Below, one piece after another: positions 29,577-33,599 of a stretch of 64,000 nucleotides of DNA. The DNA is taken from the NCBI GenBank assembly GCA_011391125.1, contig JAABRE010000013.1:1-64000 (forward strand), in the 5' to 3' direction. Under the pieces are notes generated by a model, which was not told where the DNA came from, ran no database searches, and worked only from the letters and a program-made list of their open reading frames with translations. Made by a program: the position numbers and the translations under genes. The stretch comes from Synechococcales cyanobacterium S06 (lineage in GTDB: Bacteria; Cyanobacteriota; Cyanobacteriia; Cyanobacteriales; JAABRE01). Each line of letters starts with the position of its first letter. Position 1 is the stretch's first letter.

Positions 29577-30590
29577 TTAGAGAATTGGTATGGTAATTAA
29601 TTTACCATTTTCCTGTAAAGATTGACTGATATAAGTCAAAATATGTACTAATTCTGTTGCTAAATTTCCATCAGAAAAAGGGAGATAATTTTGAGTAATA
29701 ATATGCTCAATAAATTGCTCACAAACTAATTTTAAGGGTTCAGCTTTTGCTACTTCAATGATTACAGAATTAAGATTAGTCGGACTGAATTGATCATTCT
29801 GTAATTCAAAATTACCTTGGTGAATTATTAACGGTGAATCTAACGATAATTCATCAAAAATAAGAGTGCCATTATTACCGACTATTCCCATTCTTCTTTG
29901 TTTATCGGGATTTGACCAACAAAGATGAATATAAGCAGAAAAACCACTAGGATAAGTCAAATTAATGTAAACTAAATCCGCTAAATTAGGTTGTAACCAA
30001 GTTTTACCTTGAGCGGAAACTTGACAAGGAAGTTCCCCTAACCAATAATTAAAAATAGCTAAATCGTGAATTGCTAAATCCCATAAACAATCTAAATCTT
30101 GACGTATTGGACCTAAATTAGTTCTGGTAGCATAACCATAACGTAAATCTCCTAAAATTCCGCTTTTAATTAATTTTTGACCTTTAGTTACAAAAGGATT
30201 AAATAAATAGGTGTGATCAACTAATAATAAGCAGTTTTTTTGTTGTGCAAATTGAGTTAATTCCCTACATTCATCAGTATTTAAAGTTAAAGGTTTTTCC
30301 GCTAAAACATGAAAACCGCGCTCTAAAATATCCTTAATTAACACATAGTGGGTGGAAGCAGGAGTAGCAACTATTACCCCATTAATTCCGGGTGAATCAC
30401 AAACAGAATGCCAATTTGTGCTGAAAATAATGTTAGAATTTGGGGGTAATAATTCCCTTTCACAGTATTTTAAACGAGCCAAATTACTATCAACAATGGC
30501 AACAATTTTAACTTGGTCATTTTGAGAGAATATCCTGACTAGATGTGAACCCCAACGACCCACGCCGATAATAACAATTCCGATTTTCAT
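29577..30590 (-). CDS. Gfo/Idh/MocA-family oxidoreductase
   Basis: This 337-residue NAD(P)-dependent dehydrogenase has the Rossmann start IGIVIIGVGRWGSHLVRIF, the EKP motif (HVLAEKPLTL) and a DLAIHDLAIFNYWLG segment with the usual catalytic Asp/His. Members oxidise or reduce sugars, inositols or related compounds, and the substrate cannot be predicted. It lies 7 nt after the stop of the small disrupted gene on the same strand, so the pair was probably an operon before the TnpB element broke the upstream gene. Confidence 0.88.
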   Translation of the reverse strand: MKIGIVIIGVGRWGSHLVRIFSQNDQVKIVAIVDSNLARLKYCERELLPPNSNIIFSTNWHSVCDSPGINGVIVATPASTHYVLIKDILERGFHVLAEKPLTLNTDECRELTQFAQQKNCLLLVDHTYLFNPFVTKGQKLIKSGILGDLRYGYATRTNLGPIRQDLDCLWDLAIHDLAIFNYWLGELPCQVSAQGKTWLQPNLADLVYINLTYPSGFSAYIHLCWSNPDKQRRMGIVGNNGTLIFDELSLDSPLIIHQGNFELQNDQFSPTNLNSVIIEVAKAEPLKLVCEQFIEHIITQNYLPFSDGNLATELVHILTYISQSLQENGKLITIPIL

Positions 30591-30597
30591 AAATTAA

Positions 30598-30964
30598 TTA
30601 AACTAGGCTAACGGTAGCTTGTTCTATTTTTTTACTAATAATATCACTATCAATCCGATAAGTTATATTATATTCAGAATCTTCACCTTCGGCCTGAAAA
30701 TAACCAGATAAATCAAGATTTAAAGAGATTAATTGTTTAAGTGTAGTTTCAAATAAAATTAAACCTTCGTCGGTTAAATCAGCACCATAAAAAACATAAC
30801 TGGTCCAGTTAATTGGTATTTCTTGCCAACACCAACCTTGATTATATAAAGAATGTTTAGGATGATTAAGATCATTACTTTTCAATGTTTTCAGAAGATC
30901 AACAAGTTGGCAAAAGTTGTCTGGTTCAATTTCTAACCTGCCCCGTAAAGAATAAAAATATGAC
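30598..30964 (-). pseudogene. Small conserved gene severed at its start codon by a TnpB element
   Basis: The remaining coding sequence runs in frame from 30964 to the stop at 30598. Joining plus-strand 30964 directly to 32324 restores ATG TCA TAT, so the protein began MSYFYSLRGRLEIEPDNF and was 122 residues long. The join also restores an RBS, gagg, 9-10 nt before that ATG. Today the RBS and the first two bases of ATG lie beyond the element. A TTG at 30885 could start a 95-residue product. The protein family is unknown to me; it contains GWCWQEIPINWTSYVFYGAD and is acidic at the C-terminus. The arithmetic fits exactly: 367 + 2 = 369 nt, 123 codons. Confidence 0.75.
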
Positions 30965-31083
30965 CAAAAAACTGGGTTTTATGTTCCTCGTCGTTCTACG
31001 GCGACTTTCTTTTTTCGTCTGTCTTGTATTTTTTTCTAGTTTTTAGTTAAAATTTTGACACTGAATACATTAGTATCAAAATT

Positions 31084-32307
31084 ATGTTTGTTGTAGAATG
31101 CAAAATCAGAAAACCTAAACCTAATCAAATTCTTGCCATGGAAGAAGCTATTAAAACTTCTCAGTTTGTGAGAAATAAGGTTTTGCGTTTTTGGATGGAC
31201 AATAAAGGTATGGGTAAAACTGAGCTTTTTCGCTACAACACTCAATTGCGTGCTGAATATCCCTTCGTCAAAGACTTAAATTCCCATGCTTGTCAAACTG
31301 CTGTAGAACGTACTTTGCGAGCGATTAATCGGTTTTATGATAATTGCAAAAAGCAGGTACAAGGGAAAAAAGGTTATCCCCGTTTTAAGAAAAATTCTCG
31401 CTCTGTTGAATATAAAGTGTCAGGCTGGAAATTGTTAGAAAACCGCAATAAAATTACTTTTACTGATAAAAAAAATATCGGTGAAGTTAAATTAATTGGT
31501 ACAAGAGACTTAAATTATTATCAACTTGAGCAAATCAAACGAGTCAGAATTATTAGACGAGCCGATGGTTATTATGTACAGTTTTCTATTCAATTAGACC
31601 CTAGAGATACGGTTAAACCATTGATTCCTAGTCAAGAATGCTGTGGAATTGATATGGGTTTAAAGTATTTCTTAGCAGAATCAAATGGAAATATTGAGCC
31701 GATACCTCAGTTTTATCGGAAAGCCGAAAAGCAGTTAAATAAGCTAAACAGAAGAAAGTCAAAGAAATTTCAAAAAGGAAAACCTCAATCCAAAAATTAT
31801 CACAAAGCTAGGAATAGATATGCTCGAAAACATTTAAAAGTAAGTAGGCAGCGAGAAGAGTTTGCTAAGAGAGTAGCACTCCGTTTAATCAAGTCTAAAG
31901 ACTTAGTAGCCTACGAAGATTTAAGTGTCAAGAACATGGTCAGAAATCGAAAACTAGCGAAGTCGATAAGTGATGCGGGATGGTCATTATTTCGCCGATG
32001 GTTAGAATATTTTGCCTATAAATATGGGAAAATTGCTATAGCAGTTCCACCCCATAATACGAGTCAACAATGTTCTAATTGTGGTGCAATAGTTAAGAAG
32101 TCGCTATCAGCTCGAACCCATATTTGTCCTCAATGTGGGTTTGTAGAAGATCGAGATGTTAATGCGGCCTTAGTCATCTTGCAACGTGGATTAAATACCG
32201 TGGGGCACACGGAAATTAACGCTTGGGGAAAAGATACCTCTACTTTGGTGGGAGCAATCCTGTCAGAACAAGTAACTTTGATGAACCAAGAATCCCCACG
32301 CCTTTAG
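31084..32307 (+). CDS. tnpB: RNA-guided nuclease TnpB (IS605-family)
   Basis: The 407-residue protein looks intact. It has an N-terminal OrfB helix-turn-helix region, RuvC-I Asp in CGIDMGLKYFLAE, RuvC-II Glu in VAYEDLSVKNM, a zinc ribbon (CSNCG...CPQCG) and RuvC-III Asp in EDRDVNAAL. TnpB uses an RNA transcribed over its own 3' end to cut DNA matching the flank, helping the element to persist. There is no TnpA here, so movement needs a TnpA in trans. All catalytic acids are kept, so it may be active. Confidence 0.93.
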   Translation: MFVVECKIRKPKPNQILAMEEAIKTSQFVRNKVLRFWMDNKGMGKTELFRYNTQLRAEYPFVKDLNSHACQTAVERTLRAINRFYDNCKKQVQGKKGYPRFKKNSRSVEYKVSGWKLLENRNKITFTDKKNIGEVKLIGTRDLNYYQLEQIKRVRIIRRADGYYVQFSIQLDPRDTVKPLIPSQECCGIDMGLKYFLAESNGNIEPIPQFYRKAEKQLNKLNRRKSKKFQKGKPQSKNYHKARNRYARKHLKVSRQREEFAKRVALRLIKSKDLVAYEDLSVKNMVRNRKLAKSISDAGWSLFRRWLEYFAYKYGKIAIAVPPHNTSQQCSNCGAIVKKSLSARTHICPQCGFVEDRDVNAALVILQRGLNTVGHTEINAWGKDTSTLVGAILSEQVTLMNQESPRL

Positions 32308-32323
32308 GCACAGGGAGTGTCAA
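32180..32323 (+). ncRNA. Candidate reRNA (omega RNA) of TnpB
   Basis: In this family the guide RNA overlaps the 3' end of tnpB and ends at the right end of the element. Here the segment ends with the hairpin-prone cccacgcctttaggcacagg and gagtgtcaa. The guide would then be the flanking attagtttaatcctcaaaat from 32324 on, which is the former RBS region of the broken gene. The 5' limit is a guess. Confidence 0.45.
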
Positions 32324-32441
32324 ATTAGTTTAATCCTCAAAATTATGGTTAAGTACGTGTTCATAATTAATTGTATAAATCTAAAAGCTCGTTGTCCCAC
32401 TTCTCCGGCTGATAGCGCTAAAGCGCAACAACAAACCTTCT

Positions 32442-33167
32442 TTATTTTTCATTATTTTTAATCGCTAAAAATGCCTCTTTTGCAGCAGATTGTTGGGCCG
32501 TTTTTTTCGACCTTCCAATTCCTTTAGCTAAACATTTTCCTTGAAACCAAACTTCTGCTTGAAAACGTTTTTCGTGTTCTCTTTCTTCGAGATTTTCTTT
32601 TACTTTATACTCTGGTAATTGTTTATATTTCCTTTGTGTCCATTCCTGTAAAGCATCTTTATAATTTTGTAAGGCTGGATCTAACTTAATTTCTGCGGCT
32701 TTTTCTTTAAGCAGAGGTTTTAACCAAGGATTAATTAATTTTAGGGTTTTTGTACTTAAATAAAGCGCTCCTAACACCGCTTCAAAAGCATCGCCTAATA
32801 GGGAAATTTTCCCTTCACTATCATAACTTGCTTTTAAATTAATTGTTAAATAGCGCTCAAAACCGTAACTATGGGCGAATTCTGCTAAGGTGCGATCGCT
32901 CACCAACATGGATCGGATGGCGGCAAATTCTCCCACCGTAGCATCAGGATAAGTTTCAAATAATGTTTCTGAAGCGACTAAACGCACGACAGAATCACCG
33001 ATAAATTCCAATTGTTCATAGTTATTTTCGGTGGAAATACTAACATGAGTTAAAGCTAAATCTAACAAGTTCCAATTAATAAGAGATAAATCAGTCAAAC
33101 CCAATTTTTCAACTAATTTTTTTAAATCTTTACCGCGACGTATATCTGATAAAACCATATATTTCAA
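32442..33167 (-). CDS. rnc: Ribonuclease III
   Basis: RNase III cuts double-stranded RNA in rRNA and mRNA processing. The 241-residue protein has the catalytic signature YEQLEFIGDSVVRLV, a second acidic cluster in LLGDAFEAVLGALY, and a C-terminal double-stranded RNA-binding domain starting near DYKDALQEW and ending SKKTAQQSAAKEAFLAI. Cyanobacteria often have two or three rnc paralogues. It lies immediately downstream of the RNase P RNA gene on the same strand (14 nt apart), an arrangement joining two RNA-processing enzymes. Confidence 0.93.
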   Translation of the reverse strand: MKYMVLSDIRRGKDLKKLVEKLGLTDLSLINWNLLDLALTHVSISTENNYEQLEFIGDSVVRLVASETLFETYPDATVGEFAAIRSMLVSDRTLAEFAHSYGFERYLTINLKASYDSEGKISLLGDAFEAVLGALYLSTKTLKLINPWLKPLLKEKAAEIKLDPALQNYKDALQEWTQRKYKQLPEYKVKENLEEREHEKRFQAEVWFQGKCLAKGIGRSKKTAQQSAAKEAFLAIKNNEK

Positions 33168-33181
33168 TTATTAATAAAAAG

Positions 33182-33599
33182 AGAGAGTTGGACATAAGCC
33201 GGGTTCTGTTCTTTTGTTCATCACAAAAGGGCGGTTATCTATCTACGACGGTTGTTGCCAAACGCCTCTAGCGGTTCACCTTAAACGCCACGGGGAAAAG
33301 ACCAACCCTTGTGACTCCGACCTTGCACCCAACCGGGGTTTACCGAGCCAACACCTCACGATGTTGCTGGTGCGCTCTTACCGCACCTTTGCACCCTTAC
33401 CAATTCAAGTCAAAAGTCAAAAGTAATCAAACTTGAGCTTTTCCTTGATTTTTGACTTGAAATTGGCGGTATTTTTCTGTGGCACTATCCTCACGATCGC
33501 TCGTACTGGGCGTTACCCAGCAAGTTTAGTCTTTGGGGTGCCCGGACTTTCCTCAAATTAATCTGAAAATTAACTTGCAACCACCTCGCCTACTCTCTC
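33182..33599 (-). ncRNA. rnpB: RNase P RNA (class A)
   Basis: On the minus strand the RNA begins agagagtaggcgaggtggtt and ends gcttatgtccaactctc, the usual paired ends of bacterial class A RNase P RNA. Inside are the conserved gaggaaagtccgggc (P4/CR-I region) and ggtaagagcgcaccagc-type blocks. Near plus positions 33396-33464 there is an extended hairpin with tandem caaaagt words, in the place of helix P12, where cyanobacterial rnpB varies. The apparent plus-strand ORF at 33214-33426 is an artefact of this gene. Confidence 0.95.

What the first reader, a model, noticed from the sequence alone, without database searches (positions are those of the whole stretch)
30598..32325. TnpB element inserted within a start codon; original gene fully reconstructable
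Deleting 30965-32323 joins cattagtttaatcctc to a reading frame so that a gagg RBS, an ATG and a 122-residue ORF appear at once, with exact codon count (369 nt). The element thus split AT|G. The predicted TnpB guide equals the former RBS region, which is the donor-site logic of TnpB: the empty site would be re-cut. The neighbouring oxidoreductase (29577) lies 7 nt downstream and may have lost its promoter or translational coupling.
Basis: partly seen in the sequence, partly recalled or inferred. Interest (0 to 1): 0.72.

Follow-up and report, generated by a model that had tools for sequence, protein, structure and literature searches.

The report
TnpB element splits an immunity gene
In a cyanobacterium, a small mobile element carrying the RNA-guided nuclease TnpB has landed exactly inside the start codon of a small gene that probably encoded an antidote to a DNA-cutting bacterial toxin, silencing it; the event is well supported but is an ordinary kind of insertion.

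Summary
Confirmed. A tnpB-only IS200/IS605-type element (1,359 nt, 30965-32323) sits between the AT and the G of a start codon on the minus strand. Both ends were checked against relatives. All 17 right ends examined stop at G(T/C)GTCAA, then diverge. Ten of 11 related elements, plus a remnant in the same genome, begin after TGAC (the other after TTAC). Joining the flanks gives a 122-codon gene whose 122-aa homologue in another cyanobacterium aligns without gaps from Met1 (47% identity); three further homologues or remnants start at the same residue.

In four other genomes (two cyanobacteria, two Streptomyces plasmids) its homologue lies directly downstream of a Tox-REase-3 nuclease-toxin domain. 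It is probably the immunity gene of such a toxin, in a family that Pfam and NCBIfam do not hold. No Tox-REase-3 was detected in this genome, so it looks orphaned. It lies inside a conserved rnc-oxidoreductase pair that the element now splits.

TnpB has intact RuvC residues, and its predicted guide plus TGAC matches the empty site, as the TnpB retention model expects. Caveats: the restored frame also holds an upstream ATG (135 codons), no natural empty site was found, and nothing is experimental.

The parts
30598..30964 (-). Body of the interrupted gene (from the G of the start codon to the stop TAA), now without its start codon; putative Tox-REase-3 immunity protein
   Evidence: homologues next to Tox-REase-3 toxins
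30961..30964 (+). TGAC target/TAM flank immediately left of the element (GTCA on the minus strand = G of ATG plus Ser2 codon TCA)
   Evidence: conserved in 10 of 11 related elements
30965..32323 (+). tnpB-only IS200/IS605-type element, 1359 nt; starts CAAAAAACTGGG, ends GGGAGTGTCAA; no target duplication
31084..32307 (+). TnpB, 407 aa; RuvC residues D190, E278, D358 and CxxC...CxxC zinc motif kept
32293..32323 (+). Right-end hairpin and 3' end of the predicted omega/re-RNA scaffold (also scored as a terminator-like stem on the minus strand)
   Evidence: fold not better than shuffles, so weak on its own
32324..32339 (+). Predicted 16-nt guide = right flank; antisense to the former Shine-Dalgarno region and the AT of the start codon
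   Evidence: sequence; the only exact match in the genome
32324..32338 (-). Stranded 5' part of the interrupted gene: GAGG motif, spacer and AT of the start codon
29577..30590 (-). GFO/IDH/MocA oxidoreductase, 7 nt downstream of the interrupted gene; directly follows rnc in most relatives
32442..33158 (-). rnc (ribonuclease III), upstream partner of the conserved pair (first ATG at 33158; the listed ORF opens at a TTG at 33167)

Best explanation
A tnpB-only IS200/IS605-type element inserted, without target duplication, 3' of a TGAC target whose complement is the G of a start codon plus the next codon (TCA). This separated the ribosome-binding region and 'AT' from the rest of a 122-codon gene and silenced it. 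Shown by sequence: element ends, target motif, gene restored by the join, start position shared with homologues, intact RuvC residues. Inferred: the gene was the immunity gene of a Tox-REase-3 nuclease toxin, orphaned here and so expendable; insertion was catalysed in trans by a Y1 TnpA (the genome has seven Y1 matches); TnpB carries a guide copied from the right flank and cuts the empty site (TGAC + ATTAGTTTAATCCTCA) if the element leaves, favouring its restoration by recombination. The element and the small gene together separate rnc from the oxidoreductase it normally adjoins, so the oxidoreductase now probably needs its own promoter.
For: Ends: (six copies in one genome with different flanks; element lengths 1319-1371 nt). 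Restored gene and start. Toxin linkage: Tox-REase-3 gene ends 1 nt before the homologue's ATG in G002 (134 bits); degraded Tox-REase-3 plus homologue in G193; Tox-REase-3 C-terminus 6 nt upstream of homologues in two Streptomyces plasmids (130 and 136 bits). Tox-REase-3 not detected in this genome (the second search rang in G193). TnpB. TnpA candidates. Guide matches exactly only at its own flank; the seven non-self near-matches that were read lack TGAC. rnc-oxidoreductase adjacency. Insertion 3' of the target without duplication and cutting of the donor joint: PMC8612924.
Against: No natural empty site was found; the closest genomes held are of the same order. The restored frame has an upstream in-frame ATG with no obvious Shine-Dalgarno, so the insertion could lie in codon 14 of a longer product. 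The toxin link comes from homologues, not this locus. The lower-ranked two-mismatch guide matches were not checked for TGAC. The predicted right-end RNA fold is no better than shuffles (z -1.49 and -0.33).
Confidence: 0.88

Rival explanations
1. The gene started at the upstream in-frame ATG (135 codons) or GTG (147), so the element interrupts codon 14 or later rather than the start codon.
For: The frame is open upstream after the join, with ATG at 135 and GTG at 147 codons.
Against: Four homologues or remnants begin at the 122-codon position; in G002 the toxin stop codon lies 1 nt before that ATG; GAGG sits 9 nt before the 122-codon ATG and no similar motif is visible before the upstream ATG.
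Confidence: 0.08
2. The small gene was already expendable or decaying (as in G193 and G017) and the insertion is neutral, with no functional consequence.
For: Two of the cyanobacterial homologues are remnants with internal stops; no Tox-REase-3 was detected in this genome.
Against: Apart from the insertion the frame is intact over all 122 codons and keeps the conserved residues.
Confidence: 0.35
3. The 122-aa protein is not an immunity protein but another gene that happens to adjoin Tox-REase-3 genes.
For: No Pfam, NCBIfam or PADLOC family matches; a Streptomyces homologue in CP106747 has no detectable Tox-REase-3 upstream.
Against: Four loci in two phyla have it immediately downstream of Tox-REase-3 in the same direction, the arrangement usual for immunity genes (PMC3482391).
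Confidence: 0.12
4. The element is a TnpB-derived regulator whose guide controls a host gene rather than a transposon-retention nuclease.
For: The guide lies in a former 5' untranslated region beside a housekeeping gene pair.
Against: RuvC residues intact; no other exact guide match and no TGAC beside the near-matches read; ordinary element ends.
Confidence: 0.03

Closest known systems
IS200/IS605-family TnpB elements (ISDra2, IS608; tnpB-only relatives)
   Same: TnpB with intact RuvC residues and zinc motif, insertion 3' of a short target without duplication, fixed right end (GTCAA), guide taken from the right flank
   Different: Target TGAC rather than TTGAT (ISDra2) or TTAC (IS608); no tnpA inside the element
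Tox-REase-3 polymorphic toxin/immunity modules (PF15647)
   Same: Homologues of the interrupted gene lie directly downstream of Tox-REase-3
   Different: Toxin not detected in this genome; no match to any Pfam family, including the Imm7 and SUKH types reported with Tox-REase-3 in PMC3482391

Membership tests
IS200/IS605-type TnpB element | TnpB protein | tested here: met
   NCBIfam guided_TnpB 280.6 bits (cut-off 100), PF07282 and PF01385 above cut-off
IS200/IS605-type TnpB element | RuvC catalytic D-E-D | tested here: met
   D190, E278, D358 align with conserved motifs of a TnpB-like chain of known structure
IS200/IS605-type TnpB element | Insertion 3' of a fixed short target, no target duplication | tested here: met
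   TGAC left flank in 10 of 11 relatives; no direct repeat at the element ends
IS200/IS605-type TnpB element | tnpA (Y1 transposase) in the element (full IS605 type) | tested here: not met
   Only tnpB between the ends; so a tnpB-only element, with Y1 proteins elsewhere in the genome
IS200/IS605-type TnpB element | Guide RNA and RNA-guided cutting of the empty site | not testable with these tools
   Guide and target inferred from sequence only
Tox-REase-3 immunity gene | Directly downstream of the toxin | tested here: inconclusive
   Met for homologues in four genomes, not at this locus
Tox-REase-3 immunity gene | Matches a described immunity family | tested here: not met
   No Pfam or NCBIfam match
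Tox-REase-3 immunity gene | Neutralises the toxin | not testable with these tools
   Needs an experiment

The most novel reading that the evidence does not exclude
The element acts as a reversible switch: scarless excision would regenerate the start codon and the immunity gene exactly, while TnpB cutting of the empty site keeps the switch off.
Probability: 0.04. Interest if true: 0.65.

Novelty: new member of a known kind. Interest (0 to 1): 0.3.

Why it matters
It is a clean natural example of a TnpB insertion that can be read to the base, with a defined TGAC target and a guide directed at the restored gene's ribosome-binding region. It also points to an immunity-protein family, absent from Pfam and NCBIfam, that goes with Tox-REase-3 toxins and is shared by cyanobacteria and Streptomyces.

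Tried and rejected
Searches for a natural empty site: only same-order relatives are held, and none has the small gene between rnc and the oxidoreductase. The genome-contig scan gave only one relative, apparently the same locus as G002. Fold prediction of the 121-aa remainder was of low confidence (mean pLDDT 68.5) and the PDB fold search gave no match at E <= 0.001, only weak ferredoxin-like hits. The guide as a regulator of another locus: no supporting site. Using open frames across the junctions of other copies to fix the left end was uninformative, because many offsets gave similar ORFs. G356 hit (24% identity, E 4e-4) judged doubtful.

Full report
OBSERVATION. The window holds a TnpB ORF (31084-32307, +, 407 aa) between two minus-strand genes, an oxidoreductase (29577-30590) and rnc. 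Removing 30965-32323 joins ...AAAAATATGAC to ATTAGTTTAATCCTC...; the minus strand then reads GAGGATTAAACTAATGTCATATTTT, an ATG with a GAGG motif 9 nt upstream and a frame of 122 codons ending 7 nt before the oxidoreductase ATG. In the occupied state the frame has no start before an internal TTG at codon 28.

ENDS. The right end was compared with 17 related elements; all match up to G(T/C)GTCAA and diverge from there. Six copies in genome G003 with different flanks share TGAC|CGAAAATCTTGGG at the left and GAGCGTCAA| at the right; across 11 related elements the left flank is TGAC in ten and TTAC in one, with lengths 1319-1371 nt. The same genome carries a remnant with TTGAC|CAAAAAACTGGG. Other left ends in G003 have TTAC at the same place, the target described for IS608 (PMC8612924). 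These fix the window element at 30965-32323. Whether TGAC is target or element cannot be told from occupied sites alone, but the restored Ser2 codon and Met1 need it to be target.

THE INTERRUPTED GENE. A protein of 122 aa in G002 aligns with the restored product without gaps from Met1, 47% identical. Remnants in G017 and G193 and a Streptomyces protein start at the same residue. In G002 the gene follows a Tox-REase-3 gene with 1 nt between stop and start; in G193 both are degraded; in two Streptomyces plasmids it lies 6 nt downstream of a large toxin ending in Tox-REase-3. A further Streptomyces homologue lacks a detectable Tox-REase-3. It matches no Pfam, NCBIfam or PADLOC family. I infer an immunity protein. 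No Tox-REase-3 was found in this genome; one search had no positive control, but the same search over the phylum detected G193.

THE ELEMENT. TnpB scores 280.6 bits against NCBIfam guided_TnpB and keeps D190, E278, D358 and the zinc-binding cysteines. There is no tnpA inside; the genome has seven Y1 transposase matches and 19 TnpB-type matches. The predicted guide is ATTAGTTTAATCCTCA. It has one exact genome match, its own flank; seven near-matches that were read lack TGAC beside them. In the published model TnpB cuts the joint left by excision so that the element is restored from the sister copy (PMC8612924). That the guide covers the former ribosome-binding region follows from where the element landed; it is not extra evidence of regulation. 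The predicted right-end fold is not better than shuffles.

CONTEXT. In 21 of 29 relatives rnc lies directly upstream of the oxidoreductase on the same strand, 16 within 100 nt and five overlapping. Here they are 1,851 nt apart, 492 without the element. The small gene therefore probably entered an older gene pair, and the element then split it further. Loss of read-through to the oxidoreductase is plausible but untested.

VERDICT. Observation and interpretation stand, with the gene now given a likely identity. It is an ordinary insertion, well resolved, with a modestly new immunity family attached.

Noticed in passing
33180-33596 (-): RNase P RNA gene (rnpB, class A, 255 bits) just upstream of rnc; it contains a TCAAAAG-type short tandem repeat near 33411-33424.
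   Followed up: partly
L003:1298-1605 (G000:C132): Remnant of the same element (left end and first codons of tnpB, 93% identical) interrupted by a short insert with inverted ends (TAGTAATTCCAA...GGAATTACTATAG), resembling a small non-autonomous element inserted at TA.
   Followed up: partly
32414-32438: AGCGCTAAAGCGCAACAACAAACCT matches a repeat found at several other places in the genome (L003, L043, L057, L058); it lies between rnc and the interrupted gene.
   Followed up: no
L060, L065, L066 and L068-L078 (genome G003): Many copies of a related left end with a TTAC flank in one cyanobacterial genome, suggesting a recently active element family.
   Followed up: no
L039:3634-4369 (same as L006:1134-1869): Compact stand-alone Tox-REase-3 gene with its 122-aa partner, a minimal putative toxin-immunity pair in a cyanobacterium.
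   Followed up: partly
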